DNA of 64,000 nucleotides from Streptococcus infantarius subsp. infantarius ATCC BAA-102 (GTDB taxonomy: Bacteria > Bacillota > Bacilli > Lactobacillales > Streptococcaceae). The stretch covers positions 1 through 64,000 of the forward strand of contig NZ_DS572688.1 in NCBI RefSeq assembly GCF_000154985.1, in the 5' to 3' direction. The position numbers and the translations under genes are program-made. This document shows positions 4,718-44,242 of the stretch, piece after piece (position 1 is the stretch's first letter; every line of letters begins with the position of its first letter). The notes beneath the pieces are model-generated. The model was not told the origin of the DNA, ran no database searches, and saw only the letters and a list, made by a program, of their open reading frames with translations.

Positions 4718-5443
4718 TTAACGATGGAATTTTTTATAAGCAAACTGCCTTAATGTTTCATCAAAAAGACAAATTCTACTTCTATCGCTATCCAATCCCT
4801 GCTTTTTCAAGCTATCTTGAATAATCTTACCGTAGTTCTTGCTAATGCGACAATGTTCAGGTAAAGCCATTAATTCCTTTAAAGCTATAAGTTTCTCCTC
4901 ACTAAAAGCTTCTAGCTCAATAAAAGCCCCAACATGACTAGGAAAAAGATCAAAACAAACAGCCGTATTTTCTTTTTTGTACTCATGACGTTTCTTCTAA
5001 GAAAACATGCGACAACGTGTGAACCCCAAATCGTACAATTGATTTATCAAATAAATACAATTTTCAGACACATTTTTTCCTTCTAAAATAATCCGAGGAA
5101 GTACTACATCCAATTCCTTTTGTAATAAACATTGAATATCAGAAAAAGCAAGACTATCATCAGAATCACTAGAATACTCTAATTCTACATATTCTTTGCA
5201 ATGATTATTTTGACGTTTGAGTTTAATCGTCAACAAGTATCTCCCAACACTTATTATGCGATAGCGAATGACTATTCCTTTAGATTTCCTTTCAAAATTA
5301 GGTAGATCAACCGTAATATCTGTTTCAAGACATTCACCCACAGAGACAAAGCACGCCTTTTTCTCTTTATAAATACTCAAAACTTCTTCAGATAGCTGAT
5401 ATTTCAATTCCAATTCATTTTTGGCGTTACTCAAACTCTTCAC
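4718..5443 (-). pseudogene. CYTH-domain protein interrupted by an in-frame TAG
   Basis: One reading frame of 241 codons runs from GTG 5443 to TAA 4718 with a single TAG at 4997-4999 (codon 149). The first part has the CYTH signature: NELELKYQLSEE near the N-terminus, then VIRYRI, LLTIKLKRQ and EYVELEY. The part after the TAG begins KKRHEYKKENTAVCFDLFP and continues with HVGAFIELEAFSEEKL, a normal CYTH C-terminal half. CYTH proteins hydrolyse triphosphate compounds or make cAMP; the substrate here is unknown. The GTG start lacks a strong ribosome site; ATG 5453 (AAAGGA upstream) is out of frame, so a second lesion near the start is possible. Confidence 0.85.
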
Positions 5444-5445
5444 CT

Positions 5446-6024
5446 TCAGTCATATAGTCCTTTTTCAACACTTCTTTCAATTAATTCCTTTGCTAATTAC
5501 CACAAAATTTCTGAATCTTCTTTAATGAAAGCTTTCTTAGCCAAAACTCTATCAGCCGTTAATTTATCGGGATTATAACCTTCTTCTGAAACAACCAAAT
5601 GATTAATCAGCGGTACCAAAGCATCAATAATTCTAGCATATCTTGATTCTGGACTATTTCCTTTTTCAAATTCAAGCCACAATTCTGTAAATTTCTCGCC
5701 TTGAATGATTGGTAAGACTGCTAAACTTTTCTGTAACGATAAGTATTCCTTATCATGAGATACGGCTTTGCCTGTGGTATCATACACCCAAGTATCACCT
5801 GCGTAAATTTCTCCCAAATCATGGAGTAAAAGCATTAAAGTCACTTTTCCTATGTCCAATTTTTCGGGAAAATAATCTTGAAAAAAGTTTGCTACTAATG
5901 CAACCTGCCAAGAATGTTCCGCACTATTTTCAAATCGCCCATTCAATGTCCTATTAAAACGCGTCACAGTTTTTAATTTCTCGATTTCTTTAACAAAATC
6001 AACTTCTCGCTCAACTCCTGTCAT
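5446..6024 (-). pseudogene. HD-domain phosphohydrolase (YfbR/HDDC2-like) with premature TAA
   Basis: The intact part is 175 residues and carries the metal-dependent HD motifs: AEHSWQVAL with the first His and LLHDLGE with the His-Asp pair, plus a conserved RYARIIDALVPL segment. Relatives act as 5'-deoxynucleotidases. The frame stops at TAA 5497-5499 just after SEILW, but 16 further codons (LAKELIERSVEKGLYD) follow in the same frame before TGA 5446; this amphipathic helix looks like the native C-terminus. ATG 6024 has AAAGGAG 8 nt upstream. Loss of one C-terminal helix may leave activity, so this could be a truncated functional gene. Confidence 0.75.
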
Positions 6025-6082
6025 CACTAAATCTCCTTTGTATAGAACATAGTATATACTTATACCGATTTAATTGCAAAGC

Positions 6083-6110
6083 AAAACAGTAGTCAATCGA
6101 CTACTGTTTT
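6083..6110. terminator. Bidirectional terminator downstream of comEC
   Basis: AAAACAGTAGTC (6083-6094) pairs with GACTACTGTTTT (6099-6110) around a short loop. It separates the comEA-comEC unit from the HD-CYTH unit. Confidence 0.88.
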
Positions 6111-6195
6111 TAGTATGCTTTCAATTTTAACTCTAATACTTCAATTAAAACTGGTAAGAAATTAATATGTATTTCTTTGGATAATTTTCACTCTT

Positions 6196-8427
6196 TTACC
6201 TCACTGTTTCAATGTGCCAAGTTTTCAGCCCTCTAAAGCGGATAGCACCTTGTTCATCAGTACGGTAAATAGTCATGTTTTGTGCTTGAAAGCGTTCAAG
6301 CGTTTCTTGATGAGGATGCTTGTAGCGGTTATTTTGTCCTGCGGAAATCAGAACAACTTGCGGTGAAATATGCTCTAGAAATTCTGGGCTTGATGAACCT
6401 TTTGAACCATGGTGTCCTGCTTTTAAAACATCAACTGGCAGATTGGGATAAGTTGCTATCATCTGTTGCTCGCCCTCTTCTTCCAAATCTCCTGTAAACA
6501 AAAAATTTTTACCTAAAAGCTTGCCATATAACACCACCGAATCATTATTAGAACCATCACCAACTTCAATTGGATAGAGCACCTGCAAGTGACTTCCCAT
6601 AATTGGCAAGTTATCTCCTGCAAAAACTGCGCGAACTGGCGTCTTCATTTGTCGAAGTTTAACCACAAAATCTGGCTTTGTGAGACTTCCTGGACTCACC
6701 AGGACTTGACCAATTTTCAGCTCTTTTGCAACTTCCAGCATATCACCCATATGGTCAGTATCCGTGTGCGTCAAAACCAACTGGTCAATTTTACCAATTC
6801 CTCGACTTTTCAGATAAGGAATCAGTGTCCGCTCAGCATTGCTATCAGCTAAGCGCTTTTGCCACGATTTTTTCTCACTAAAACTCACTTTTCCTCCGAC
6901 ATCAATTAACAGCGTATGCCCTTTAACATCACGCACAAAAATACTATCTCCCTGCCCAATGTCAACCACCGTCACTTCGTTTTCCAGCGGATGCTTGATT
7001 TGGAAAAATAGCAGAGCTATTAAGCTAAGAAGGAAAATGGCCACTTTTTTACGTTGATAACAGTCATAGAGAAGCCCTATTGTCAAAAGTAATAACAACA
7101 AAATTCCTAGACTTGGTCTGCCAAAAACGAGTGGGGTACCAACCAGCGACTTGCTAAATTTGATGATAGTTTCTAGAAAAACAAAAAATGGATTTAACGC
7201 GGTAATTTTAACCAGAGGTGATAAAAGAAAAACAAAGGTCAAAACAGGTAAGATAAGCGTATCAAAAGCCAGTGAAAAAATAGCTGTTAAAAGCAGCGAC
7301 AAGGGTTGAAATACTGAGAAGAAATATAGCAAAACCGGTAAACTTCCCAGCGAAATCGCCAAACATTCTGTAAGGATTTTTCGATAATGACTAAGCTCAT
7401 CGAAATCAATAAAACTCAGGATAAAAGCGTAAGTAAACGAAAGAATGCCTCCCGTCGTCAGTAGAAAATTTGGCATCAAAATAAAAAGGGTCATTAAAGT
7501 ATAGGCAAGATTATCTAATTTTTTTATGCCAAGATTTGCAAAAGCAGACTGAACAAGGCTCCGAACAACTGATACCGAAAAGCCTGTCAAGCCAGCATAT
7601 ACAAGTGAAAACGGGATTTGCAGTATATCCACATAATCTCGCCGTAACCCAAGACGTAAAATAATAAAACGAAAAAGTGCCACAAAAAAGCCTACCTGCA
7701 TACCAGACAGAGCAAAAAGATGAATAATCCCTAAACTCGTGTATACATCACTCATCTCATCAAAAGACTTATCCAAATATCCAAACAAAAGGCCAGTCAT
7801 GTAATGTTGGATGGGAGCAGGAAAATTCCTTTGAATACTGACAATCGCCTGTCTTCTAAGTTCATGTAGTCGTTCAAAAAAACTTAAAGAGCTCTGCTGT
7901 CTCATTTCAGTAATCGAAGAAAGATTAGCAATCCGATAAATGCCTTCATGTTTAAGGTAAGTGCGGTAATCAAAACCACCAAAATTCCGCTGTGGCGTTG
8001 CCTCTTCTAAATCCACCTGCCCTGATAAAAACATTGTTTGATTAAGATTTTTAAAAAATTCCTGCTTTTTTTCTGACTTCAAGGTATAAAAAACTTGGTA
8101 AATCTGCCCAGCTTCCTTACCTCGAAAGGATAATAAATCACCATTAACCGAAATCGTATCAGGAATCATCTGGATTTTTGTTAAATGAGCTGGCGCCGCT
8201 TGATAAACCTGTTCTGTCTGATTAGCCTTAGTCAGGAAAAATATCGCAAAGAAAGCCAAGCACAGTGAAACCTGACACCAAGCCTTCCAACCATACTGTT
8301 GCCATAAAAACAGCAAGGCTAACAGGAGTAAAATCAGACATAACACCACTTTTTCAAAACAAAAATAATAAAGTAAAGTGAGCAAAAAAGCCAATTGAAT
8401 TGGCTTAATGGGAAGATACTTAATCAA
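6196..8427 (-). CDS. comEC: DNA internalisation competence protein ComEC/Rec2
   Basis: 743 residues, full length. ComEC is the membrane channel that passes single-stranded DNA into the cell during transformation. Order: two or three N-terminal membrane helices, an extracellular OB-like region (to about residue 190), the multi-helix Competence domain with FALSGMQVG, and a C-terminal metallo-beta-lactamase-like domain with THTDTDHMGD near residue 555 and LKAGHHGSKGSS near 670. It starts at a TTG (8427) overlapping the comEA stop by 8 bp (GTTGATTAA), so translation is coupled. All motifs are intact, so uptake capacity appears retained. Confidence 0.95.
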   Translation of the reverse strand: MIKYLPIKPIQLAFLLTLLYYFCFEKVVLCLILLLLALLFLWQQYGWKAWCQVSLCLAFFAIFFLTKANQTEQVYQAAPAHLTKIQMIPDTISVNGDLLSFRGKEAGQIYQVFYTLKSEKKQEFFKNLNQTMFLSGQVDLEEATPQRNFGGFDYRTYLKHEGIYRIANLSSITEMRQQSSLSFFERLHELRRQAIVSIQRNFPAPIQHYMTGLLFGYLDKSFDEMSDVYTSLGIIHLFALSGMQVGFFVALFRFIILRLGLRRDYVDILQIPFSLVYAGLTGFSVSVVRSLVQSAFANLGIKKLDNLAYTLMTLFILMPNFLLTTGGILSFTYAFILSFIDFDELSHYRKILTECLAISLGSLPVLLYFFSVFQPLSLLLTAIFSLAFDTLILPVLTFVFLLSPLVKITALNPFFVFLETIIKFSKSLVGTPLVFGRPSLGILLLLLLTIGLLYDCYQRKKVAIFLLSLIALLFFQIKHPLENEVTVVDIGQGDSIFVRDVKGHTLLIDVGGKVSFSEKKSWQKRLADSNAERTLIPYLKSRGIGKIDQLVLTHTDTDHMGDMLEVAKELKIGQVLVSPGSLTKPDFVVKLRQMKTPVRAVFAGDNLPIMGSHLQVLYPIEVGDGSNNDSVVLYGKLLGKNFLFTGDLEEEGEQQMIATYPNLPVDVLKAGHHGSKGSSSPEFLEHISPQVVLISAGQNNRYKHPHQETLERFQAQNMTIYRTDEQGAIRFRGLKTWHIETVR

Positions 8428-9100
8428 CAGTCACCTCAGATTTTAATTTTTCCAAAGTCTTCTCACCAATGCCAGAAATATTTTTCAAATCATCAACGGA
8501 TGAGAAACCACCATTAGCATCACGATAATCAATGATATCTTGCGCACGTTTAGCCCCAATGCCAGAAATGGTTTGGAGTTCTTCCGTAGTTGCGGTGTTA
8601 AGATTGATTTGCGCTGAATCATCACCTTGTACCCCGCTAGCTGTCGTTGCTTTAGCCTGAGAAGGTGTGCTTGCTGGTGTGACTTCTTCACCAATTTTTG
8701 CCACATAGACAACCGCTTCGTCAGCTAATTTTTCAGCTAAATTGACTGACTTCTTATCAGCATCATCTGTAAATCCGCCAGCTTTTTTGACCAAATCCAT
8801 AACACGGCTGCCTGATGATAATTCATAAACACCTTCATTTTTAACCGCACCCTTGATATCGATAAAAATCTTGCCAGAGTCATCTTGAGAATGAGACGTC
8901 ATAGTCTTTGTCTTTTTTGGTTCAAAATTTGAACTTGCTTGGATACTACTAGAAAGTGCAGGTAAATCACTCTGTAGCTGTGTTTTCGGTCTAGTCATAC
9001 TAGACCAAGCAAAGAATGCCACAAGCATAACAAGCACTGTTCCTAAAACCGCTGCTACCGTCTTATGTTCCAAAAGTCTTTCTTTCATCTCTTCAATCAT
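8420..9100 (-). CDS. comEA: Competence DNA receptor ComEA
   Basis: 226 residues. One N-terminal membrane helix (about 15-33) anchors the protein; a Ser/Thr/Lys-rich linker, an SLBB domain (IFIDIKGAVKNEGVYEL to about 140) and a C-terminal helix-hairpin-helix pair (INLNTATTEELQTISGIG and LKNISGIGEKTLEKL) follow. The HhH region binds incoming double-stranded DNA. ATG 9100 is preceded by GAGGTAATAGG. It is first gene of the comEA-comEC operon. Confidence 0.95.
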   Translation of the reverse strand: MIEEMKERLLEHKTVAAVLGTVLVMLVAFFAWSSMTRPKTQLQSDLPALSSSIQASSNFEPKKTKTMTSHSQDDSGKIFIDIKGAVKNEGVYELSSGSRVMDLVKKAGGFTDDADKKSVNLAEKLADEAVVYVAKIGEEVTPASTPSQAKATTASGVQGDDSAQINLNTATTEELQTISGIGAKRAQDIIDYRDANGGFSSVDDLKNISGIGEKTLEKLKSEVTVD

Positions 9101-9130
9101 CCTATTACCTCACCTTTTAAGCATTAAAAA

Positions 9131-9166
9131 AAAGGCTCCTGGGGAGCCCTTACTTAATTATTCGAA
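9131..9166 (-). promoter_or_regulatory. SigX (cin-box)-like element followed by a leader terminator, comEA
   Basis: Minus strand TTCGAATA (9166-9159) differs at one base from the streptococcal competence box TACGAATA and lies 59 nt before the comEA start. Between it and comEA is GGGCTCC-CC-AGGAGCC followed by nine T, a strong intrinsic terminator shape. If the cin box is real, the terminator is inside the comEA leader. Confidence 0.5.
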
Positions 9167-9190
9167 AAAAAACTCGGAAGATCCGAGCTT
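9163..9190 (-). terminator. plsC terminator
   Basis: Minus strand CTCGGATCTTCCGAG (6-bp stem, 3-nt loop) is followed by eight T. It is the first of two terminator-like hairpins between plsC and comEA. Confidence 0.88.
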
Positions 9191-9197
9191 TTTTTAT

Positions 9198-9944
9198 TTA
9201 TTTCATTTTACGGTGCTTATCTGGGTCCCAAACAAAGCTTGCAATGTAGCTAAAGAGCAATGTCAACAGAACAACGATAATCGCCACAAGTCCAAGAGGA
9301 ATACGGTAAATGTAAGTTAATGGATTTGGTTTCTTGTTGGTATGATAAGTCGCATTTTCAGCATCCAAACGGTCAAATTCTGTTTGAATACGATTTGCCA
9401 CTTCTTCAATCCCCTCGTCATTCATGCGTTTGATGTCAGAAATGTCAATTGGATTACCAAAGTTCATATCCACACGTTCTCCAGTCAAAAGCCCTTTTAA
9501 TTCCATTGGTCCTGCATAAACGACTGGCATAATCTTAACCTTCGCCATTTTAGCAATAACAGCAACCCCACCTTTAACATCGGTTGAATGACGGCTACCA
9601 CTTGGGAACATCACAAGTGAACGATTGCTTTTCTTCAACATGTTAATAGGGTATTTAAGAGTTTTTTGCCCTGGATTTTCACGGTCAATTGGAAAGGCAC
9701 CACACATACGAATCCACCAACCAAAGATACGATTCGTAAACAATTCTTTCTTCGCCATGAAAATAAATTCTTTCGGACGAGCAGCAAATGCCATATAAAC
9801 TGGATCCCACCAAGTACGGTGCGGAGCAACCAAGATATAGTTCTCATCCTTACTTAAAATTTTGTCCTCATTATGATAGTGAGCATTTCCATTGATAATC
9901 CAAAGTAGGAAAACCACTAATCCTCGTAAATAAGTATAAAACAC
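9198..9944 (-). CDS. plsC: 1-acyl-sn-glycerol-3-phosphate acyltransferase
   Basis: 248 residues. It acylates lysophosphatidate to phosphatidate at the membrane. The HX4D catalytic box is APHRTWWDP (about residues 40-48), the second block FPIDRENPG and the glycerol-phosphate site FPSGSRH follow. The N-terminus is hydrophobic and a strong membrane helix lies at about 215-240, an extra C-terminal anchor. The start is GTG 9944 with AAGGAG 7 nt upstream. comEA-comEC follow on the same strand but behind two terminators. Confidence 0.93.
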   Translation of the reverse strand: MFYTYLRGLVVFLLWIINGNAHYHNEDKILSKDENYILVAPHRTWWDPVYMAFAARPKEFIFMAKKELFTNRIFGWWIRMCGAFPIDRENPGQKTLKYPINMLKKSNRSLVMFPSGSRHSTDVKGGVAVIAKMAKVKIMPVVYAGPMELKGLLTGERVDMNFGNPIDISDIKRMNDEGIEEVANRIQTEFDRLDAENATYHTNKKPNPLTYIYRIPLGLVAIIVVLLTLLFSYIASFVWDPDKHRKMK

Positions 9945-10038
9945 AGATTTACTCCTTTTTCTTCAATCATTCTTTAACATTGTACCATGCTTGAGCCGAA
10001 AAATCATTACCTAACTAGTGAGAAAAGCTAAAATTTGC

Positions 10039-10044
10039 TATAAT
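10039..10044 (+). promoter_or_regulatory. Extended -10 box directly before the methyltransferase start codon
   Basis: TGCTATAAT (TATAAT at 10039-10044) is an extended -10. Only AGGTGTC (7 nt) separates it from ATG 10052, so transcription would start at or within 1-2 nt of the start codon. Confidence 0.6.
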
Positions 10045-10051
10045 AGGTGTC

Positions 10052-11063: not shown

Positions 11064-11065
11064 CC

Positions 11066-11099
11066 AAAAACGCACCCTGCTCAAGCAGAGTGCGTTTTA
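11066..11099. terminator. Bidirectional terminator
   Basis: AAAACGCAC-C-CTGCT pairs with AGCAG-A-GTGCGTTTT. It serves the plus-strand pair and the converging cshA gene. Confidence 0.88.
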
Positions 11100-11102
11100 C
11101 TA

Positions 11103-13041: not shown

Positions 13042-13052
13042 ACCTTTTACCA

Positions 13053-14597
13053 TTACATTTTTTCTTCTAAGTCAACATCTGGGTATTTATCCGCAAACCA
13101 ACGAAGTGCAAAGTCGTTTTCGAAAAGGAAAACAGGTTGATCGAAACGGTCTTTAGCTAAGATATTTCGGCTTGAAGACATGCGTTCGTCAAGATCTTCT
13201 GGCTTAATCCAACGAACAGTCTTTTTACCCATTGGCGTCATAACAACTTCAGCGTTGTATTCATTTTCCATACGGTGTTTGAAGACTTCAAACTGCAATT
13301 GACCAACAGCACCAAGCATGTATTCGCCTGTTTGGTAGTTCTTGTACAATTGGATAGCCCCTTCTTGTACCAATTGTTCAATCCCCTTGTGGAATGATTT
13401 TTGTTTCATGACGTTTTTAGCAGCAACTTTCATGAACAATTCTGGCGTGAAGGTTGGTAGTGGTTCAAATTCGAATTTATTTTTACCGACAGTCAAAGTA
13501 TCACCAACTTGGTAAGTTCCTGTATCGTAAACCCCGATAATATCACCAGCAACGGCATTTTCAACATTTTCACGTGATTCAGCCATAAATTGAGTCACGT
13601 TTGATAATTTCACTGATTTTTTCGTACGTGCTAAGTTAACGCTCATGCCACGTTCAAATTCACCTGATACGATACGAACAAAGGCAATACGGTCACGGTG
13701 ACGTGGGTCCATATTGGCTTGGATTTTGAAGACAAATCCTGAGAAATCTTTATCGTAAGGGTCGATTTCATTACCTTCAGTTGTTTTGTGACCATGTGGT
13801 TCTGGTGCAAATTTCAAGAAAGTATCTAGGAAAGTTTGCACACCAAAGTTTGTAAGGGCAGAACCGAAGAATACTGGTGTCAAATCACCAGATAAGATAG
13901 CTTCCTCTGAGAATTCATTTCCTGCTTCTTCAAGCAATTCAACATCTTCCAAAACTTGTTGGTAAAATGGGTTGTTAGCAAAGAGTTTATCCCCTTCTTC
14001 CAAGTCCGCAAAACGTTCATCACCTTTGTAAAGTTCCAAACGTTTGTTGTACAAGTCGTAAAGCCCTTCAAATGATTTACCCATACCGATTGGCCAGTTC
14101 ATTGGATAACTTGCAATACCAAGCACTTCTTCCAATTCTTCCAAAAGATCAAGTGGTTCACGACCATCACGGTCAAGTTTGTTAATAAAAGTGAAAACTG
14201 GAATGTTACGGTGTTTTACAACTTCAAATAGTTTTTTAGTTTGTGCTTCGATACCTTTGGCTGAATCGACAACCATGACTGCAGCGTCAACGGCCATAAG
14301 GGTACGGTAAGTATCTTCAGAGAAGTCCTCGTGCCCTGGCGTATCAAGGATATTCACACGTTTACCAGCGTAGTCAAATTGCATCACTGAAGATGTGACA
14401 GAGATACCACGTTGTTTTTCGATATCCATCCAGTCAGATTTAGCAAAGTTACCTGTTTTTTTACCTTTTACGGTACCTGCTTCACGGATTTCTCCACCAA
14501 AATAAAGTAATTGCTCTGTAATTGTCGTTTTACCAGCATCCGGGTGACTGATGATGGCAAATGTACGACGTTTTTTAATGTCATCTTGAATTGTCAT
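13053..14597 (-). CDS. prfC: Peptide chain release factor 3
   Basis: 514 residues. RF3 is a GTPase that recycles RF1/RF2 from the ribosome. G motifs: SHPDAGKTT (about 18-26), [14 protein letters not shown] (about 86-99) and NKLDRDGR (about 139-146), followed by the domain II/III region. ATG 14597 has AAGGAAAT upstream. Monocistronic. Confidence 0.96.
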
Positions 14598-14752: not shown

Positions 14753-15833
14753 TCAATATTTCTCATCTAGCTTATCACCAGAAACCGCAAAATAATTCAG
14801 CAATAAGATAGTGCAGATTTCAACACTTGCTCCATAATGTTCCATAGTACCAATAAAGAATGTCAACAAGAAAAGCAAGGTATGGAAAAGCGTGAACTTT
14901 TTACCTTTTAATTGAACCAATAAAAAGATTGGGTACATACAGAAAAGAATAATCCCCTGACGCAAAAGCGCATCAACATAGAAACTATCATCATACATTG
15001 GAACACCGTTAATCTCTGTAAATGTTGGAATATTTCTTGGCATCCAATTGAGACCAAATTGCTCCAGATACGCATGACCGATGCCAGTTCTTCCAGTAAA
15101 TAGATGATTCAATGTTACAAAGATAGGATTATCTGGTGTAAAATATCTCGGTAAAGCAAGGCCAAGCGCAAACATTCCTATAACAAATGGTATGATAACA
15201 TATCCTGAAACTTTAATTTTCAATAAAATTGGTTTCAAGAAATAACACAAGATAATACCAAGTGCAATGAAAAATGATGTTCTTGAATCCGTCACTGAAA
15301 AGACAAGCAAAGCTGTTAACAACATGATTATTCCACCATCAAAGCGATAAGGCTTTCTAAGCAGTGAAAAATCATAAATTAAAGTAATGAAAAACAGTCC
15401 AAGTGAGTTTGGATGCATAAAGCCATACCATAAGAGTGCCTTACAATTTCTGTATGCGGTCTTATTCCAGAGACATCATAAATAAGATGTCCATTGTAAG
15501 CTAATAAAACCATAATAGCCACGACTAGCTTGAAATAAAAGAGTGCAGTGATTAAATTATCATCATCTTTATCAACACTTACCGACAATAAAAAGAAGAC
15601 AATCATGCTTAAATCATCTATTGCTGTATCAAGATAGCCTGATGGGGGCAAAAGAATCATAAATGCGAGAGCAAAAATTCCAGCTAAAATTTTGCAATTG
15701 AAAAGCCTGTTCGACGGAAGTTCCATAAATAAATAGCAAATCCACCAATAATTGACAGGCTAGACATAAACAGGAAGACCTGTTGTGGAAACGGGTAACG
15801 TTTTAAAACCACGCTAAAAATAAAATACAACAT
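14753..15833 (-). pseudogene. O-antigen ligase/Wzy-like polysaccharide polymerase, two frameshifts
   Basis: Three pieces of one multi-pass membrane protein. Piece 1 starts at ATG 15833 (MLYFIFSVVLKRYPFPQQ) and goes off frame at a T-run (minus strand TTTT, 15689-15686); one extra T would give GFSIAKFLAGIFALAF. Piece 2 ends at the direct duplication TATGGTATGG (15432-15423); removing one TATGG restores RHSYGFMHPNSLGLFF, the conserved HPN segment of this family. Piece 3 has DSRTSFF and YDDSFYVDALLRQG, also typical. The repaired protein would be 358 residues with about nine spans, somewhat short, and the N-terminus begins right after the murF terminator without a visible promoter or ribosome site, so a 5' part may be missing. 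Confidence 0.82.
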
Positions 15834-15839
15834 TCAAGG

Positions 15840-15877
15840 AAATAAAGACTCGGTAGATAACAACCGAGTCTTTATTT
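15840..15877. terminator. murF terminator (15-bp arms)
   Basis: AAATAAAGACTCGGT and ACCGAGTCTTTATTT are a perfect 15-bp inverted repeat around an 8-nt loop, 37 nt after the murF stop. Confidence 0.88.
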
Positions 15878-15913
15878 CCCTCCTTAACACTTTTCTCTAC
15901 CATCTCCACCTCA

Positions 15914-17345: not shown

Positions 17346-18293
17346 TCAAGCATTTTCCTTATGGACCTTAGAATGATTCTTCCACCATGAAGATAAAATC
17401 GATCCAGAAATATTATGCCAAATTGAAAAAATTGTTGAAGGAATAGCTGCTTGCGGAACAAAATACTTCATTGCTAAAGTTGCACCTAAACTTGAGTCTT
17501 GCATTCCCACCTCAAATGTAATAGCCTTTTGTTGAGTCTCTTTCAAATGAAGAAGTTTTGAAAAGACAAAACCAAGCCCATAACCACAAAGATTGTGTAA
17601 CATAACAACAGGAATAACTAAAGCTGTTGCTGTTGTAAAAATATTAGCATGGTTAGCAGAAACAACAGCTCCAATAATCAAAAGAATCGCTACTTGTGAG
17701 ATTAGAGGCATCAACTGAATAATGGCATTGATTTTTTTACCTAAAAGTGTATGAACTAACACCCCTAAAATGATTGGTACAACAACAATTCTTAAAGTTG
17801 AAAGAAAAAGACTAACTGCTGGTACAGCAATAAATTGCCCTGCTAAAATCGATAACAATAAAGGAAGCATAATTGGCGCAAGAAGTGTTGAAAGAATTTC
17901 AATAGAAACATCCAAAGCAACATCTCCTCCTGACAAAAAAGCCATTACACTAGAAGAGGTTCCACTAGGACAAGAACCAACTAAAATGACACCAGCTGCT
18001 GTTGCTCCTGTTAAATGAAAAAGTTGACATAAAAGCCAAGCTAAACTTGGCATAATAATATAATGTGCCACTGTACCTAGAATGACAGGAATTGGACGTT
18101 TAGAAATACGAACAAAATCTTCAGTCTGAAGTGTCAGCCCCATCCCAAAAAGAATAATTCCCAACAAATACGATGTATTAGGGATAACCCAGGTACTAGT
18201 CTGAGGGAAGAGATAATTAAAGAAAGCCCAAATAATAACAACCAAGGTAAACCATTTACTAAGTTGTTTTGAAAAATCAGTTAGTTTTTTCAT
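17346..18293 (-). CDS. Bile acid:sodium symporter (BASS) family transporter
   Basis: 315 residues with about ten membrane spans. Family motifs include GMGLTL near residue 50, VGSCPSGTSSSVMAFLSGGDVALDVS (core-crossing region) and EVGMQDSSLGATLA. Members move organic anions with sodium; bacterial relatives include PanS, a pantoate/ketopantoate carrier, so a bile-acid substrate should not be assumed. Two adjacent ATG codons follow AAGGAG; the second (18293, 6-nt spacing) is chosen over 18296 (3-nt spacing). Confidence 0.88.
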   Translation of the reverse strand: MKKLTDFSKQLSKWFTLVVIIWAFFNYLFPQTSTWVIPNTSYLLGIILFGMGLTLQTEDFVRISKRPIPVILGTVAHYIIMPSLAWLLCQLFHLTGATAAGVILVGSCPSGTSSSVMAFLSGGDVALDVSIEILSTLLAPIMLPLLLSILAGQFIAVPAVSLFLSTLRIVVVPIILGVLVHTLLGKKINAIIQLMPLISQVAILLIIGAVVSANHANIFTTATALVIPVVMLHNLCGYGLGFVFSKLLHLKETQQKAITFEVGMQDSSLGATLAMKYFVPQAAIPSTIFSIWHNISGSILSSWWKNHSKVHKENA

Positions 18294-18452
18294 CATTTTC
18301 TCCTTAACTAAAAAGCTTTTTATCAGCAAAGCCTTTGATTTTTACAGCTTCATTATACACTTAATTTCAGAATTTTAAATCTTTTTACGTAATTATTTTC
18401 ATTTATTTTCCAAGTCATATTCAAAAGAATCTTTTTTGTGATACAATAAACC

Positions 18453-20594: not shown

Positions 20595-21941
20595 TTAATA
20601 ACCAGTAATACTTTTCTTATCAAAATAAACCGACATCCATTGGTTAAACCAATCGTTCGAATCAATTTTCACATTAGATGTTAGGAGATAAGCATTATAG
20701 TCTGTTTTGGGAGTACTTAATAGTGGTATTCTAACATCACTATTTTTAGGAGAATTGTAGAGTCTACTATATTGATTTGAAACCTCTTTAAATGAATTTG
20801 TTAAATCTTCATTTATTATCCAATAGCTATGGAGAAATAGAAAACTCAAAAGAGCTACAAAAACAGCCAATCCTTTTTGATTAAATTCCCGATACAATAC
20901 ATTAATTAAACTGAACAAAATTATTCCTAAAAATAATACCGAACCAAACAATGTTCGTTTAGGAGTTTCAGGAGAGGCTATAAGAGCAAATGCTGATGAA
21001 AAGTGTCCTACAAAAAGAATAGTCCATAAAGCAATCGTATTTTTGGAAAGTTTTACCTTTTTAACAACTAAAAGGATAATGAATAAAATAATTAAAGTGT
21101 AGATAAACCAATAATTATGAATTAAATTATCAAAAATCATTTTAAAATTATCTTTAACAATATCAATTGTTAATGTCATTGCACCTCGTTTTTGTGATCC
21201 CGGAGATTTTAACATTAACAAGAAGCCTAGACCACCGGTAAATAAACTTGCTATACCATACTTTGTTCCTTTACTCCTATAAGGGTAATGAATTGCTAGA
21301 TATATAAATGCCATTAATAAAGTCGCTGGCGATGAATTTTCATTACTTGCTCCAGCTAAAAAACCTAATAGAACTATTTCAAAGCCTTTAAAGAGTGGAA
21401 CCTCTTTATTTGTTATTGATATAATACATAAAAAATAAGTAAGATAAATAACACTTGTCCACAAATAATTACATGAACCTGAAATCCATAAAACAGATTT
21501 TCCAATTTCTGGAAGATAAAACCAAAAATATATAAATGATAATATGTAAACTGCTGGCCTAATTTTACCTACTTCTTTGGTCTTCCCTATGAGAATAATG
21601 AGCCATATTAAAATTAAATAAATCAGTGTATTAATAATATCAAAATAGATTTTTTTGAATTGTAAAATAAATTGGACCATTGTATGAGCAACAAATCTTC
21701 CATTCCACATTTTCCAATGATTAATTTGAGATTCTATAATTGATAATATACCATGAATACGTTTAGGATGACTAGTTGGCAAATACCCTTGATAAACATA
21801 ATGATATGTAAAGTCATCCGAAGTAAATAATGTTAAACGATTTAAGTGAAATATTAATATTGCAAATATTAAACTAAATAAACAGAACAAAAAATATCGT
21901 ATTTTTTGTTCTGTTTATTTAGCACTTCTTTTCAAAACCAT
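20595..21941 (-). pseudogene. Multi-pass membrane protein (DUF6056/GtrS-like) with in-frame TAA near the start
   Basis: The main frame encodes about 440 residues with roughly ten membrane spans and an early SDDFTYHYVYQG loop, the acidic motif seen in GT-C-type glycosyltransferase-like membrane proteins; NYLW and SNENSSPATLL follow. Continuous reading back from the first helix gives TEQKIRYFLFCLFSLIFAIL, then TAA (21917-21915), then MVLKRSAK starting at ATG 21941 behind AAAAGGACT. So the gene has an ochre stop at codon 9. The first downstream start-type codon is TTG 21890, inside the hydrophobic helix. It may be silent or rescued by reinitiation. It lies alone between recR and ddl. Confidence 0.75.
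21874..21922. repeat. Perfect 23-bp inverted repeat over the 5' end of the membrane gene
   Basis: Arms 21874-21896 and 21900-21922 are perfect reverse complements with a 3-nt centre (TCG). The left arm codes for the first helix (YFLFCLFS on the minus strand); the right arm contains the TAA stop. It is AT-rich and not a usual terminator. Confidence 0.85.
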
Positions 21942-21966
21942 AGTCCTTTTATTCTAATCAATAATC

Positions 21967-30944: not shown

Positions 30945-32430
30945 TTAATTATTACGCATTAAGTTCAAAATTGGTTTTTTGATAAGTAGCAACAAAGCAC
31001 CAATACCAAGACATACAAGTCCTAAGATACCGAAGAATGCTACTTCTGTGTCTTTAGTAAAGTATGGTGTAATCAAAGCATTCACTGCTTGTGATGTTGA
31101 GTCTGCCAAGAACCAAAGTGCAACCATTTGTGATTGGAATGCAAGTGGTGCAAGTCTAGTTGAAACAGATAGACCAACTGGAGAAACTAACAACTCACCT
31201 GCCATTTGAACGGCAAACATTACTACCAACCAGATAAAGCTTACACGGTTGTTTGTTCCATACAACATACCTGGCAAAGCCATGATCATGTATGACACAC
31301 CAGTTAACAACAATCCTAATCCAAATTTTGTAACCGCTGATGGTTGACGTTCACCCATTTTGTTCCAAATCCAAACAAATAATGGTGTCAAAATAACGAT
31401 GAACAATGGATTAAGCAATTGATACCATGAAGGGTCAATGTAAAAGTTAATACCAAAGATTGTTGGATGCAAGTTTGTACGAGTTTCACCCCAGACAGCA
31501 ATAACTGTCGCACTTTGTTCTTCAACTAACCAGAAAACGATAGAAGACAAGAACAATGGAAGGTAAGCCAACAATTGCTTACGTTCTGTACTTGAAACTT
31601 TTTTAGATGCGAACATCAAGATAAAGTAGATAAATGGGATGAAGATACCAGCCATTGATAGAATATTGATGACGTTATCAACGAATTTAGCTGGGCTTGT
31701 CTGGTAAAGTAATGTTCCAGCAACAGCTAAGATAACAAAACCAATAACTGATTTGATTGCTAACCCTTTTTTCTCTGCTGTCGTTAATGGATTGGAAGGT
31801 TTGTTTCCAATTTCTGGGAATTGCTTCATTCGTCCATACCAATAAACAAATAGAGCAAATACCATACCAATAGCGGCAAGAGAGAAACCTAAGTGATAGT
31901 TGATACTTTGTCCAACTGTTCCTACTACGATAGGAGCAAGCAATGAACCGATATTGATACCGATGACAAAGATATTGAAACCTGTGTCACGACGAGGATC
32001 GTCTGGTTCATATAAGTGACCAACCATATTTGAAATGTTTGGTTTCAACATCCCTGTTCCCAAGATAATCAAGAATAGTGAGATGAAAAGAGACGTTAAG
32101 CCAAACGGAAGAGCTAAAACAACGTGCCCTAGGGTAATAAGGATACCACCGATAAAGATTGTTTGAGATGCGCCGAGGACGCGGTCTGCAAACCATCCAC
32201 CAATAATACCAGAAAGGTATACAAGAGCTCCATAGATACTTACAATAGCCATTGCTTGTGGCTTAGGAAGTCCTAACCCTGCGTTAGCTGAAGTAACAGA
32301 TGCGTACAAATAGTAAATTAAGATTGCACGCATTCCATAATACGAGAATCGCTCCCAAAGTTCTGTTTGGAATAAAGTAAACAAAGCCTTAGGCTGTCCA
32401 AAAAATGTTTTTTCTTTTATTTTTTTCCAT
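30945..32430 (-). pseudogene. dtpT: Peptide:H+ symporter (POT/DtpT family) with a frameshift in codons 7-9
   Basis: The bulk is an intact 12-14-span POT transporter: [18 protein letters not shown] (ExxERFxYY proton motif), [15 protein letters not shown], and [14 protein letters not shown]. The natural start lies in another frame: ATG 32430 gives MEKNKRK and then runs off frame, while removing one A from the minus-strand A6 run (32413-32408) yields [20 protein letters not shown], the usual DtpT N-terminus (494 residues). Without correction the protein could begin only at TTG 32384, which has no ribosome site. An A7 run precedes the A6 run, so transcriptional slippage could restore the frame. 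Confidence 0.8.
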
Positions 32431-33580: not shown

Positions 33581-33595
33581 GTATTAAACGTTTAA

Positions 33596-35982: not shown

Positions 35983-35985
35983 ATT

Positions 35986-37644: not shown

Positions 37645-37657
37645 AGAACGACCTTTC

Positions 37658-38128: not shown

Positions 38129-38939
38129 CTTTAAATTCCTTATGCGCTTTTTCAACAACTTCTGGAATCATAGCAACTACTAAATTTTTCGCGTCATCTG
38201 ATTTTTGCAAATGTGCCAAAAATTCAATATTACCATGTCCACCTTGGATAGGTGAGAAATCAATCCCTTTAACTGTAAATCCGAAATTGACAGCAAAACT
38301 TGTCACAGTTTCCAAAACTTTTTGGTGCACAGCGTTATCACGAATGATTCCATTTTTTCCAATTTGGTCACGTCCAGCTTCAAATTGCGGTTTAATAAGA
38401 GCTACCACTTGACCATCATCAGCCAAAATATTATGAAGTGCTGGCAAAATCAAATTCAGCGAAATAAAGCTGACATCGATACTAGCAAAAGTTGGTTGCC
38501 CTTTGGTAAAATCAGCTAATTCAGCATAGCGGAAATTATATTGTTCCATACTACGCACACGTTCGTCTTGACGTAGTTTCCAAACCAATTGATTGGTTCC
38601 CACATCAACAGCATAAACCAATTTTGCACCATTTTGTAGCATCACGTCTGTGAAACCACCTGTTGAAGCACCAATATCAATCGTTGTTTGACCATTAACA
38701 GAAATCTCAAAAACTTGCAAAGCTTTTTCAAGTTTTAGTCCACCTCGGCTGACGTATTTTAATTTTTCACCCTTTAGTTTTAATTCTGTTGCATCATCAA
38801 TTTTTTCACCTGGTTTGTCGTAGCGCTCGCCGTTAATAACATTGACCACTAGACCAGCCATTACTCCACGTTTTGCCTGCTCACGTGTCTCAAAAAGCCC
38901 TTGTTTATAGGCTAGTACATCAACTCTTTCCTTAGGCAT
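38115..38939 (-). CDS. tlyA: TlyA-family rRNA (cytidine-2'-O)-methyltransferase
   Basis: 274 residues. N-terminal S4 RNA-binding domain (ERVDVLAYKQGLFETREQAKRGVMAG), then an FtsJ-like SAM domain with DIGASTGGFTDVML, KPQFEAGRDQIGKNGI and PIQGGHGNIEFL. Annotated as hemolysin in older literature. Overlaps ispA by 8 bp. Confidence 0.94.
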   Translation of the reverse strand: MPKERVDVLAYKQGLFETREQAKRGVMAGLVVNVINGERYDKPGEKIDDATELKLKGEKLKYVSRGGLKLEKALQVFEISVNGQTTIDIGASTGGFTDVMLQNGAKLVYAVDVGTNQLVWKLRQDERVRSMEQYNFRYAELADFTKGQPTFASIDVSFISLNLILPALHNILADDGQVVALIKPQFEAGRDQIGKNGIIRDNAVHQKVLETVTSFAVNFGFTVKGIDFSPIQGGHGNIEFLAHLQKSDDAKNLVVAMIPEVVEKAHKEFKDEKE

Positions 38940-39801
38940 TTAGTCGTAACCTTTCTATCATTTCTGTGATTTTTTCTGCATGTAAGCCATGAGTGACTGA
39001 GAGGTTTTTGAAAATCGCTAGCGCTTGGTCAAGCGACTGATTTAAAATCTCATAAGACTTATCTAAACCAAGTAAGCTTGGGTAAGTCGCTTTGTCAGCT
39101 AGTAAATCTTTTTTCGGTGTTTTTCCAATTTCTTCAAAACTTGCTGTCACATCTAAAATATCATCGCGAACTTGGAAAGCAAGCCCAATCAAGCTACCAG
39201 TTTTACGCAAATTAGCAAGTTCTTCATCTTCAACACCAGCAACAATTCCTGCTGCCACAACAGGGAAAGTCAACAATTTTCCTGTTTTATTAGAATGAAT
39301 CAATTGTAATTCTGAAAGGCTGAGCTTACGCTCTTCACCTTTCATATCAAGCATTTGACCACCGACCATACCATAAGTTCCTGAAGCATGTGATAATTCT
39401 GCAATCAAACGAATTTTGATGTCAGCTGTTAGCGCAGCATTTGCCAACAAATCAAATGGGTCTAAAAAGAGACTATCTCCAGCCAAAATCGCTGTTGCTT
39501 CATCAAATTTTTTGTGGTTTGTTAAGCGTCCGCGACGGTAATCATCATCATCCATGGCAGGTAAATCATCGTGAATCAAACTACCTGTGTGAATCATTTC
39601 AAGAGCGGCAGCCACATCATAATGAGCATCTGTCAAAGAAATTCCAAAACCTTCTAGCAATTCTAGAAAAATCAATGGACGGATACGTTTGCCCCCAGCA
39701 TCAACAGAATACAAGATTGACTCAATCAAATCTGGTGATACTAAATCTTTTTGTTCGTAATATTGATGAATGGCTTGACCAATTTTACTTACTTTATCCA
39801 T
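38932..39801 (-). CDS. ispA: Polyprenyl (farnesyl) diphosphate synthase
   Basis: 289 residues. First Asp-rich motif LIHDDLPAMDDDDYRRG and second FQVRDDILDVT, GGKRIRP near the N-terminus. It makes C15 diphosphate for undecaprenyl carriers and quinones. Stop/start overlap with xseB by one base (TAATG type). Confidence 0.95.
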   Translation of the reverse strand: MDKVSKIGQAIHQYYEQKDLVSPDLIESILYSVDAGGKRIRPLIFLELLEGFGISLTDAHYDVAAALEMIHTGSLIHDDLPAMDDDDYRRGRLTNHKKFDEATAILAGDSLFLDPFDLLANAALTADIKIRLIAELSHASGTYGMVGGQMLDMKGEERKLSLSELQLIHSNKTGKLLTFPVVAAGIVAGVEDEELANLRKTGSLIGLAFQVRDDILDVTASFEEIGKTPKKDLLADKATYPSLLGLDKSYEILNQSLDQALAIFKNLSVTHGLHAEKITEMIERLRLNA

Positions 39802-40016
39802 TAGGCATCCATTTCTGTTTCAGTTCCGTCAGCTTGCATCACTTTAACAAGTGTTTTTTCAGCTGAATCTAGTGTTTTTTGCAATTCTTTTGAGAGAAGC
39901 ATTCCTTTTTGGAATTCAGCAATGGCATCTTCAAGAGCCACATCGCCGTTTTCAAGTTTTGTTACAATCGCTTCTAAATCTTGTAAATTTTCTTCAAATG
40001 TTTTTTTACTTGGCAT
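39801..40016 (-). CDS. xseB: Exodeoxyribonuclease VII small subunit
   Basis: 71 residues, all-helical: [36 protein letters not shown] is the family signature. Overlaps xseA by 11 bp. Confidence 0.96.
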
Positions 40017-41334
40017 CTTTTACCTCCACTTCGAGTTGACCGTCTTTTAATTGAACCGTCAATTTGTCTCCTAGATTGACATCGGTCACACTTGAGATGA
40101 CTTTATCATCTTTTTGCACCATCGCATAGCCCCTAGCAATAATACGGCTAGTATCAAGGGACAATAAGGCATCTTGTGCCTTTTCAAATCGAGCTAACTT
40201 ACTATCGTATTGACTAGTCATATTTGATAACAATAAACGTCTTAAACTTTGCAAATTGTCTTTGTAATGCTTAATCTGACTATCAAAATCCAAAGCAAGT
40301 AAACGCTGGTGTAATAACTCTTGACGTTGTTTAGCTTGGCTAAATTGATTTTGCATGGTATTTATCAAGGACATGACCAAGCGATCCAGTTTTTGAACAT
40401 AACCATCATATAAACGCTCTGGCTGTCTAAAAATCACTGAATTAGCTAATTTATCAAGACGTTCTTGACTTTGCTTAATGCGACGTAGAGCAGCTTGATA
40501 GATACGATTATCACGTTCAGCAATCCAAGAAATAATATCAGCCTTAGTCACAGGTGTCGCAAGTTCAGCAGCCGCTGTCGGAGTCGCTGCACGACGGTCG
40601 GCAACATAATCTGCCAATGTCGTGTCCGTCTCGTGTCCCACACTCGAAATGACTGGCAAACGAGATTCAAAAATCGCTTGAACAACAATTTCTTCGTTAA
40701 AAGCCCATAAGTCCTCGATAGAACCTCCACCACGACCAATAATCAAAAGATCTAAGTCATCACGTTCGTTTGCTTTGGCGATATTAGCAGCCACTTCCTG
40801 ACTAGCACCTTCTCCTTGAACCTTTGTCGGGAAAAGTAAAATCTCAACCCCAGGAAAACGACGAGAGACAGTCGTGATAATATCTCGAATAACCGCTCCA
40901 CTTGGACTGGTTACCACACCGATTTTCTTCACAAATCGAGGCAGTTGACGCTTATGACGCTCATCAAAGTAGCCAGCTTCTGCTAATTTCTTCTTCAACT
41001 GTTCAAATTGCAGCGCTAAAGCACCAATACCGTCTGGTTCTGCCTTTTCAATAATAATAGAATATGACCCACTCGGTTCATAAAGTTGGACACGTCCCAC
41101 AACATTGATTTTCATACCTTCTTCAAGCTCAAAACCAAGTTTTTTAAAAGTCCCTGCCCACATCGTCGCTTGAATCACTGCATTTTCATCTTTCAAAGAA
41201 AAGTATTGATGCGTTGGACGACGTCGAAAATTGGAAACCTGACCTGTCAAATAAACCCGCTCCAAATAAGGATCACGATCAAACTTTAATTTAAGATATT
41301 TAGTTAAGGTCGAAACACTTAAATAATCTGACAT
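40006..41334 (-). CDS. xseA: Exodeoxyribonuclease VII large subunit
   Basis: 442 residues. N-terminal OB fold ([21 protein letters not shown]), catalytic core with [56 protein letters not shown], then the coiled-coil arm. Bidirectional ssDNA exonuclease with XseB. GGAGCCTGTC precedes ATG 41334. First gene of the operon xseA-xseB-ispA-tlyA-argR-recN. Confidence 0.96.
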
Positions 41335-41409
41335 GACAGGCTCCTTTCCATAGTATTTTTGACTTCATACAAATTTTGCATATCATTTACTATTATAACA
41401 GAAAAAAAC

Positions 41410-41502
41410 TGTCCAGTGGACAGTTTTTTCTCGAGCCTAGAAATTCAAAAGCGAGTTATGTCCAGTGGACAGTTTTTTCTCGAGCCTAGAAATTCAAAAG
41501 CG
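41410..41502. repeat. Tandem 44-bp direct repeat carrying terminator palindromes
   Basis: Two identical 44-bp copies (41410-41453 and 41459-41502; period 49 bp) start TGTCCAGTGGACAGTTTTTT and end ATTCAAAAGCG, separated by AGTTA. Each contains the palindrome GTCCAGTGGAC flanked by A/T runs. The first copy extends to AAAAAACTGTCC-AGT-GGACAGTTTTTT, a bidirectional terminator; the second has a shorter left arm. Located upstream of xseA and downstream of the L,D-transpeptidase-like gene. Confidence 0.92.
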
Positions 41503-41547
41503 GCTCTATTGAAAATCGAAAATTTTTTCTAATTCTAGGACCTCTAA

Positions 41548-42117
41548 CTAATGCACACTAACGATAACTCCTTCTGGCATATTCTCAAAAAGCCACTTGG
41601 CATCTTCTTTTGATAACCTTACATTCCCATCAGTACATGCCTTTCCGAGTTTTTTCGTCTCTCCTTTCAAGACCTTTCCTTTCCAATCAGTCGGAAGACT
41701 TTGAAACTGACACGCTCCATGGTCTTTAAAGGATACCCAGTAACAAACACCTCGGTTCAAACTATCATCATAAGAAAAGTCACCACGTTCTGCCTCAATA
41801 GCAAATTTCCCCGTTGGTGTTGGCGTATCTTTAGCGCCAGTCGATACTTTGGTTTTAAAAATGACATCATTTTTAGAATAAACAATCATTTTCTGCTGTG
41901 AAATTGACACTAAAATACTTAAATGATCATACTTTGACAAGTCAGGATAAATTTTCTTCTGAGTTTTCTTCATGCTTTTTTCAAAAGCATACTCATCAAG
42001 TTTAACCTCAGATTCTTGATGAGTAACCATCAGTTGTCGACACAGACCATAACCAACCACTAGGTTAGTAAAAGTCAAAAGTAAGATAAGAACCTTTTTT
42101 GAAAACTTCTTTCCCAT
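41548..42117 (-). CDS. YkuD-like (L,D-transpeptidase fold) secreted protein with altered active site
   Basis: 189 residues. N-terminal signal/anchor helix (about 8-26), then a YkuD-type domain: HLSILVSISQQKMIVYSKND, STGAKDTPTPTGKFAI, YWVSF. In usual L,D-transpeptidases the C-terminal box is SHGCxRL; here it is ACTDGNVRLSKEDAKW, so His is Asp and the catalytic Cys position is Asn, with a Cys four residues earlier. It may use a different nucleophile or have lost activity. AAAGGGAAA precedes ATG 42117. Confidence 0.8.
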   Translation of the reverse strand: MGKKFSKKVLILLLTFTNLVVGYGLCRQLMVTHQESEVKLDEYAFEKSMKKTQKKIYPDLSKYDHLSILVSISQQKMIVYSKNDVIFKTKVSTGAKDTPTPTGKFAIEAERGDFSYDDSLNRGVCYWVSFKDHGACQFQSLPTDWKGKVLKGETKKLGKACTDGNVRLSKEDAKWLFENMPEGVIVSVH

Positions 42118-42140
42118 TTTCCCTTTTCCTAAACTCTACC

Positions 42141-42164
42141 TCTACCAGTTTAAGCACTGGTAGA
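42141..42164 (-). other. Hairpin after the surface protein gene
   Basis: TCTACCAGT and ACTGGTAGA pair (9 bp) around TTAAGC. There is no T-run, so terminator function is doubtful. Confidence 0.45.
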
Positions 42165-42178
42165 AGCCCCTTCTCCTT

Positions 42179-44242
42179 TTAATCTATTAAAACGTAACGT
42201 CTTAAACTACCATAGCTAAGATAAGAAATCCATTGATGACCATCCGCATACAAAGCCTTGTCATAGCGGACTTGGTAACCTGCATCAAGCGTGAATTCTG
42301 TTGGTGCTGATAAACGCGGTTGACTCTTGACCTCTTTTAAACTTGTAAAAGTATAAGTCCCACTTTGTGGCATTGCTGGTGTCTTAGGTGCTTCAAGGGT
42401 TGTTTTAACACCACCGACCCCCTTCAGAGAACCATCTGCTTGCTCATAATAAAGGTGGATATTGTACTCACCATAATTATTTTTATGGTCACTAACATTA
42501 ACCCTTGTCTTATAACTACCATCAGCTTGTTTAGTTGCAGTGTACCAAATAATGTCATCTTGTCCTCCCTGCGTTGACCAGACAGGTACCTTAACTGCTT
42601 TCAGTGAACCAGGATGAGACACATTAGTTACCAAAATATCAAAACCTGCTGCAGACTGATTGCTAATGTGTAAATCGTCCGACAATCTTGCTTCAGGAAT
42701 CGTCACTTGAGTTCCCGCAATACCTTGCAGCTGACCATTTGATTCTACATAATAAAGGTGAATATTATAGGCTCCTCGTTCATTACGATGGTCTGAAAGT
42801 TTGACAGTTACCTTATAAGTCCCATCATTTTGTTTGGCACCATCGTACCAAATGATATCGTCTTGGTTATTCTTAACGGCCCAGATAGGAACCTTGACGG
42901 CTGATACATCGTTGGCATCTGAAATATTCGAAATAACCACATCAAAATCACCGTTAGCATGATTATTAACCGAAATATCTCCTGTTGGTTTTTGATTTGT
43001 CAAAGTTGCAATTGGAATATAGCGACGAACACCACCATAGCTGACGTAAGAAATCCATTGATGATTATCAGCCTCTAAAACTTGGTCGTAATAATCTAAT
43101 TTATAACCCTTTTCAAAGGTAAATTCTGTCGGTGCTAACATACGGGCTTCATTTTTTACTTCTATTGTATTTTGAAATACGTAAGAACCTTGAGCTGGAA
43201 TCGTCTTGGCACCAGCTGTTTTTTCTGGTAAAGTTACTTGCTTAGCCGCTACCCCTTGAAGATGTCCATCGCTTTCTTGATAATACAAGTGAACATTGTA
43301 GGTTCCTGTTTCACCTTTATGATCCACTATATTCACACGGACTTTGTAATCACCATTACCTTGTCTAGTGGCGTCGTACCAAATAATATCATCTTGATCG
43401 TCCTTAACAGTCCAAACAGGAACTTTAACACTTGTAATCTCCTTAGGATCTGAGATATTTGTTACTAGGACGTCAAAGCCTTGGCTTGTCACATTTTGAA
43501 AATTAAGTGAGCCAGATAATTTTTGAACCACTTCAGCTGTTAATTTAGAAATAGCAGCATAACGGCGTTGACCTAAATAAGAATTATAAGAAATCCATTG
43601 ATAACCGTCTCGTGTTAAGACTTGGTCATAAAAGACACGGTCACCAGCGTCAGCATAAAAAGCAACTGGAGCTGAGGCACTCGGTTCATTTTTTACTTCT
43701 GTCTTTTGAGAATAAGTGTAATAACCTTGGCTTGCCAAATTACTTTGAGCAGTAACAGACACTTTTGATTCTCTAACAAATGACTCTTGATTGGCTTTTG
43801 CTTCACCTACTAAATCAGCCGCATCAACAGTGACAGTTTCAGGAAAGTCCGCTGACTGATTAATTTCTTCGCTAACAACTGTCTCTTGTTCTGGCTGATT
43901 TTCTTCTGTAGATACTTGATCATCCTTTAAAGCTAGGTCTTGTTCAGCATTCACATTTTCTTCTTTGTCACCGATATCAGGCACTTCACTAGGCTGATTG
44001 ATTTTAGAAACAAGTTCTCCCTCACTTGTTTCCTACTTAGTGTTTCCGTTAGTTACTACCTGATTATCACCTGATTGAGTGACTTGTTCTTGTAACATGG
44101 CATCTGCTGACACCATATCCTCAGCTACTACAACCTCTCCTCCCATAAACAGCACACTTGCAATCAAAACGGATGCAACTCCAATGCTATATTTACGAAT
44201 TGAAAAGCGTTATGCTCTTTGATTAAAGTTACCTTTTTTCAT
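42179..44242 (-). pseudogene. YSIRK surface/secreted protein with SH3 and GBS-Bsp-like repeats, two in-frame stops
   Basis: One frame of 688 codons from ATG 44242 (AAAGGGGAAAG upstream). It begins MKKGNFNQRA, TAA (44212-44210), then RFSIRKYSIGVASVLIASVL, a textbook YSIRK signal peptide. After about 45 more codons comes TAG (44035-44033), then ETSEGELVSKINQPSE and an intact rest. The mature part has an acidic linker, then alternating units: three SH3-like units (KTEVKNEPSASAPVAFY ... WISYNSYLGQRRYAAI) and three Bsp-like units (PVWTVKDDQDDIIWYDA ... YNVHLYYQESDG). It ends at an SH3 unit with no LPXTG, so retention would be by SH3 binding to wall. A WalR box lies upstream. Confidence 0.88.

What the first reader, a model, noticed from the sequence alone, without database searches (positions are those of the whole stretch)
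4718..44242. Five in-frame TAA/TAG stops, all one C-to-T step from Gln codons, in accessory genes only
The HD gene (TAA 5497-5499), CYTH gene (TAG 4997-4999), multi-pass membrane gene (TAA 21915-21917) and surface protein gene (TAA 44210-44212, TAG 44033-44035) each keep a sensible protein sequence in the same frame after the stop. CAA/CAG to TAA/TAG explains every case. Housekeeping genes here have none. Recent G:C-to-A:T mutation, a passaged or mutagenised isolate, or niche adaptation with relaxed selection would all fit; suppressor-tRNA readthrough is the exotic alternative.
Basis: partly seen in the sequence, partly recalled or inferred. Interest (0 to 1): 0.72.

Follow-up and report, generated by a model that had tools for sequence, protein, structure and literature searches.

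The report
Ordinary gene decay in a streptococcus
A stretch of a bovis/equinus-group streptococcus chromosome carries several genes broken by stop codons and small insertions or deletions, which is ordinary gene decay, although at least one break looks copied from a neighbouring DNA hairpin rather than being a simple point mutation.

Summary
Close relatives carry open copies of three of the four genes (HD, CYTH, surface protein). The fifth stop (DUF6056) has no close open relative and lies in one arm of a perfect 23-bp hairpin, so a C-to-T origin is unproven there. Six frame-breaking indels, in three further genes, were missed. One belongs to a cluster that turns an imperfect inverted repeat of the relatives into a perfect one, the mark of quasipalindrome template switching. 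Mutagenesis is not supported: the window's G:C-to-A:T excess (2.80) is like that of relative G113 (2.67). Weakened selection is supported: dN/dS in ORFs taken as intact is 0.121, against 0.058, 0.035 and 0.093 in relatives, and G113 broke three of the same genes independently. Suppressor readthrough has no positive support but could not be tested directly. Such decay is published for the S. bovis/S. equinus complex (PMC4051162, PMC3640971). Low interest; the hairpin-templated lesion is the best detail.

The parts
5446..6027 (-). HD_3 (YfbR-like) phosphohydrolase gene, stop TAA 5497-5499; the HD_3 domain is complete before the stop, only the last 17 of 192 residues (relative's numbering) are cut off
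4718..5443 (-). CYTH-domain gene, stop TAG 4997-4999 at codon 151 of 243, inside the CYTH domain
20595..21945 (-). DUF6056 multi-pass membrane gene; stop TAA 21915-21917 a few codons after the likely start (start judged by eye); the rest open
21874..21922 (.). perfect inverted repeat, arms 23 nt, loop 3 nt, holding the DUF6056 stop in one arm
   Evidence: (z -9.74)
42179..44242 (-). surface protein gene (export signal judged by eye; SH3_5 and GBS Bsp-like repeats) with two stops (TAA 44210-44212, TAG 44033-44035) in its first 70 codons; open copies exist in relatives
14753..15909 (-). membrane protein gene (384 aa in four relatives, 387 in G113; multi-pass judged by eye; no Pfam family at E 0.1) broken by four frame-breaking indels
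15838..15879 (.). perfect inverted repeat, arms 17 nt, loop 8 nt; imperfect in the relatives; private change cluster in one arm
30945..32430 (-). POT-family peptide transporter gene; one-base insertion in an A-run near the start (about 32415); rest open
52924..53507 (+). DUF3278 membrane protein gene with a one-base deletion near 53065
13053..14597 (-). intact RF3 release factor gene, bearing on the readthrough idea

Best explanation
The window comes from an S. equinus-group lineage in which purifying selection has weakened, and dispensable genes are being lost by whatever mutation comes: transitions (the HD, CYTH and surface-gene stops), short length changes (POT and DUF3278 genes, and most lesions of the 384-aa gene), and template switching within imperfect hairpins (one lesion of the 384-aa gene, and probably the DUF6056 stop). 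Shown: the lesions, their absence from the relatives compared, the open copies in relatives for six of the seven genes, an inverted repeat that is imperfect in relatives and perfect here, the raised dN/dS. Inferred: loss of function (the HD, POT and DUF6056 lesions lie near gene ends and may be mild), template switching as the process, hairpin templating at DUF6056, and the ecological cause.
For: Eleven lesions (5 stops, 6 frame-breaking indels) in 7 genes. Private N:S in ORFs taken as intact 183:412, dN/dS 0.121, against 0.058 (G001), 0.035 (G075), 0.093 (G113). The spectrum is AT-biased but like G113's. G113 has its own stop in the surface gene (codon 76), a TGA in comEC, an early TGA in DUF6056, and a stop plus frameshift in the DUF3278 gene. 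The two longest exact inverted repeats with loops up to 40 in the 64 kb (arms 23 and 17; 80 of 64000 bases) both hold a lesion; for 11 lesions a rough product gives 8.6e-5, computed after the fact. At the 17-nt repeat, G001, G075, G113 and G076 have an imperfect version, and the window's private changes lie in one arm and match the other. In the five relatives only 1 of 36 exact repeats with arms of 13 or more lies wholly inside an ORF, 5 more overlap one. Published pseudogene shares: S. macedonicus 8.7%, S. pasteurianus 7.7%, S. infantarius 4.9% (PMC4051162, passages).
Against: Four testable stops of four from Gln is mildly unusual (0.008 to 0.038). The surface gene's two stops and G113's stop all fall in the first 76 codons, which hold 7 of 56 Gln/Trp codons of the G001 copy (0.002, after the fact), so neutral decay alone may not be all. 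Long exact repeats (arms up to 20) also occur in relatives, and change clusters in repeat arms are more frequent in G075 (7 of 13 repeats, arms of 12 or more) than in the window (1 of 7), with 2 of 10 in G113 and 0 of 9 in G001, so hairpin change is not peculiar to broken genes. Relatives are one genome per species, with mosaic identity, so private changes include imported ones. The POT ORF was still among the 52 ORFs taken as intact.
Confidence: 0.8

Rival explanations
1. Recent mutagenesis, a mutator or laboratory passage with a G:C-to-A:T bias made the stops.
For: The window has the highest G:C-to-A:T over A:T-to-G:C rate ratio of four genomes (2.80), and among isolated nonsynonymous private changes 15 of 26 are G:C-to-A:T.
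Against: G113 is at 2.67; isolated private changes in ORFs taken as intact are N 26 to S 30, well below what I would expect without selection (expectation not computed); isolated synonymous changes are 12 G:C-to-A:T, 11 A:T-to-G:C and 7 transversions; 6 of 11 lesions are indels.
Confidence: 0.05
2. Selective loss: some genes, above all the surface protein, were switched off because losing them helped in a new niche.
For: Independent breaks of the surface, DUF6056 and DUF3278 genes in the window and G113; early position of the surface stops.
Against: Two lineages only; gene-wide tests were not possible; post-hoc statistics; an early stop is also what a recent neutral loss could look like.
Confidence: 0.25
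3. Stops are read through by a suppressor tRNA or by programmed readthrough.
For: The frames after the stops stay open and align with relatives; dN/dS after the surface stops is 0.316, not 1.
Against: dN/dS on the G001 and G075 branches of the same gene is 0.296 and 0.187, so 0.316 fits a young break as well; the testable stops are private; TAA ends 46 and TAG 8 of 59 ORFs, a few of these at the lesions themselves; frameshifted genes would not be helped; RF3 is intact.
Confidence: 0.02
4. Sequencing or assembly errors.
For: Five of the six indels are single-base, at least one in an A-run, which is typical of some platforms (recalled); reads are not available.
Against: Lesions are concentrated in a few non-housekeeping genes; five are substitutions to stops; the hairpin cluster is a multi-base change matching the other arm.
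Confidence: 0.08

Closest known systems
Genome decay in the S. bovis/S. equinus complex (S. macedonicus ACA-DC 198, S. infantarius CJ18, S. pasteurianus)
   Same: Pseudogenes by deletion, insertion or premature stop, at several percent of genes (PMC4051162 and PMC3640971, passages seen).
   Different: Source and species of the window are unknown, so no link to milk or any other niche can be made. Only 64 kb were compared.
Quasipalindrome-associated template-switch mutation (E. coli thyA and lacZ reporters)
   Same: An imperfect inverted repeat becomes a perfect one, as described in PMC7202029 (abstract and passages).
   Different: Seen here only as an outcome in a natural genome; the mechanism was not tested and the DUF6056 case lacks an ancestral sequence.

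Membership tests
Pseudogenes of reductive evolution in the S. bovis/S. equinus complex | Frame broken relative to open orthologs in close relatives | tested here: met
   HD, CYTH, surface, 384-aa, POT and DUF3278 genes
Pseudogenes of reductive evolution in the S. bovis/S. equinus complex | DUF6056 gene broken relative to an open ortholog | tested here: inconclusive
   The only syntenic relative (G113) is itself stopped early; other homologues, some open, are distant or partial
Pseudogenes of reductive evolution in the S. bovis/S. equinus complex | Weakened purifying selection in the lineage | tested here: met
   dN/dS 0.121 against 0.035 to 0.093; N/S tests against G001 and G075 significant, against G113 not
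Pseudogenes of reductive evolution in the S. bovis/S. equinus complex | No functional product | not testable with these tools
   Needs expression data
Quasipalindrome template-switch mutation, 384-aa gene | Imperfect inverted repeat in relatives, perfect in the derived sequence, changes confined to one arm and matching the other | tested here: met
   (G001, G075, G113, G076 imperfect; G295 more diverged)
Quasipalindrome template-switch mutation, DUF6056 stop | Ancestral imperfect repeat known | tested here: inconclusive
   Perfect 23-bp repeat present; no close relative; the arm with up to 3 mismatches matches 7 of 284 genus genomes, always with 3 mismatches, none of them a syntenic relative, and the backwards control pattern matches others at a like or higher rate, so these are noise
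Stop-codon suppression or recoding | Suppressor tRNA with CUA or UUA anticodon | not testable with these tools
   Own assembly not held; no tRNA gene lies in the window
Mutagen or mutator signature | G:C-to-A:T excess clearly beyond relatives | tested here: not met
   2.80 against 2.67, 1.98, 1.43;

The most novel reading that the evidence does not exclude
Imperfect hairpins act as preferred break points of dispensable genes in this group, so that template switching inside hairpins, as much as point mutation, sets which genes fall first; the 5'-end stops of the DUF6056 and surface genes, found independently in two lineages, would be repeated, selected switch-offs.
Probability: 0.07. Interest if true: 0.45.

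Novelty: new member of a known kind. Interest (0 to 1): 0.2.

Why it matters
It shows that a tidy set of stops read by eye as one mutational signature is a mixture of causes once indels and relatives are counted. The natural hairpin-matched lesion gives a cheap test: whether quasipalindromes are over-represented at pseudogene lesions across decaying streptococcal genomes.

Tried and rejected
Own-genome search: the assembly is not held, so a tRNA search and a genome-wide count were impossible. Hairpin as a known repeat element: no other copy in the window beyond its own two arms (18-base core, up to 3 mismatches), and no match with fewer than 3 mismatches in 284 genomes of the genus, so rejected. 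CYTH gene by solved structures: no match at E 0.1. Mutator idea: rejected. The scan of private changes in repeat arms found clusters or single changes in 7 of 13 repeats of G075, 2 of 10 of G113, 0 of 9 of G001 and 1 of 7 of the window, so hairpin change is not special to the window. Inverted repeats at the other nine lesions have arms of 4 to 7 (eight, the POT site): nothing notable. The G076 and G295 lists (10 and 11 clusters) are, by eye, mostly compensated gaps at lower identity and were not counted; two uncompensated ones in each (near the start of a 331-aa ORF and inside a 231-aa ORF) were left out too. The one cluster of G001, one of two of G075 and one of two of G113 were likewise not counted. 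The remaining G075 event is near the start of a 301-aa ORF matching the window's folate dehydrogenase/cyclohydrolase gene, a reminder that a near-start indel need not inactivate. In one search six broken genes were left out for the window (the POT ORF stayed in) but none for the relatives. Paper searches for the hairpin part; they do not show that a link between quasipalindromes and pseudogenes is unpublished.
Full report
What it is. The window is chromosome of a streptococcus of the S. bovis/S. equinus complex, judged from its nearest named relatives. Its own assembly is not held. Five relatives cover it in synteny, with gaps: G001, G075 (identical over 20,594 bases to the S. equinus Sb05 locus L031), G113, G076, and G295 (identical over 20,594 bases to the S. 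vicugnae SL1232 locus L032). Identity to the window runs from about 85 to 99% by 2-kb bin for G001 and lower in places for others.

Observation. The five stops are present at the stated places. The HD and CYTH genes form a pair that is present and open in G075, G076 and G295 and has no match in G001 and G113. The HD_3 domain of the window is complete before its stop, so this may be a mild truncation of 17 residues. The CYTH domain is cut. The surface gene has stops at codons 11 and 70 of 687, and open copies are in G001, G075 and G076.

The DUF6056 stop differs. The open frame after it matches nearly the whole Pfam profile (2-439 of 442). Among 284 genomes of the genus 13 have a match, the best being G113 at 69% identity, at the same chromosomal place, with its own early TGA. 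The stop lies in a perfect inverted repeat, arms of 23 nt, loop of 3 nt; a 96-nt stretch around it folds at -23.8 kcal/mol as DNA, z -9.74. By eye, one arm codes for the first membrane segment, which homologues share in outline; the other has no counterpart in them. I infer that the second arm was copied from the first, and the stop came with it.

What was missed. Four frame-breaking indels lie in a 384-aa membrane-protein gene between the RF3 and Mur ligase genes, one in a DUF3278 gene, and one at the very start of a POT-family transporter gene. Thus 11 lesions in 7 genes, of which 6 are indels. One indel of the 384-aa gene belongs to a small cluster of changes that makes a perfect 17-nt inverted repeat where G001, G075, G113 and G076 have an imperfect one. 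This is what quasipalindrome template switching does (PMC7202029, abstract and passages). The two repeats with lesions are the two longest exact short-loop repeats in the window. Against making too much of it: relatives also have exact repeats with arms up to 20, and changes in repeat arms are more frequent in G075 (7 of 13) than here (1 of 7; the DUF6056 repeat is not covered there because G001 and G075 lack the gene).

Tests of cause. Private substitutions polarised on G001, G075 and G113: 437 in the window, 202 G:C-to-A:T, 121 A:T-to-G:C, 114 transversions; rate ratio 2.80, against 2.67 in G113, 1.98 in G001, 1.43 in G075. With the window's rates, 36% of nonsense changes would come from Gln; with the relatives' rates, 30 to 33%. 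ORFs taken as intact: dN/dS 0.121 in the window, 0.093 in G113, 0.058 in G001, 0.035 in G075 (the six genes first known as broken were left out for the window only, and the POT ORF stayed in). Isolated private changes: N/S 0.87, 0.71, 0.28 and 0.08 for the window, G113, G001 and G075. So the window and G113 share weaker purifying selection, and both have broken genes. Frame-breaking indels seen against three or more relatives: six clear in the window; one cluster in G001, two in G075 and two in G113, of which I count 0, 1 and 1 as clear after leaving out alignment-gap clusters and one near a gene end; 10 and 11 clusters in the more distant G076 and G295 were not counted.

Parallel decay. G113 has its own stop in the surface gene (codon 76), an early TGA in DUF6056, a stop and a frameshift in the DUF3278 gene, and a stop in comEC (codon 263 of 743). 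The surface-gene stops of both lineages fall in the first 76 codons, which hold 7 of the 56 Gln and Trp codons of the G001 copy. This could be selection for loss, but rests on three stops and was noticed afterwards.

Readthrough. dN/dS after the surface stops (0.316) is near that of the open G001 copy (0.296), and on G113's stopped copy it is 0.243; this fits a young break as well as a kept function. TAA and TAG end 54 of 59 ORFs, and frameshifted genes cannot be rescued by a nonsense suppressor. No positive evidence was found, but the tRNA set could not be searched.

Verdict. Ordinary gene decay in a lineage with weakened selection, of a kind published for this species complex (PMC4051162 and PMC3640971, passages).

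Noticed in passing
L191, about position 7763 (G113 comEC homologue): The competence gene comEC of G113 has an internal TGA at codon 263 of 743, while the window and the four other relatives are open.
   Followed up: partly
window 4718-6027: HD_3 plus CYTH gene pair lying between comEC and holA, present in 3 of 5 relatives and unmatched in the other 2; a possible two-gene nucleotide- or phosphate-handling unit (function inferred).
   Followed up: partly
L167, about 2362-2402 (G075): Exact 16-nt inverted repeat with a cluster of private changes in one arm, inside an ORF that stays open: possibly another template switch.
   Followed up: no
window 17346-18329: Bile-acid-symporter-family gene without a match in 2 of 5 relatives (G075, G113).
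   Followed up: no
window 41403-41478: Inverted repeat of 20 nt at 95% with a 36-nt spacer, next to the exonuclease VII gene.
   Followed up: no
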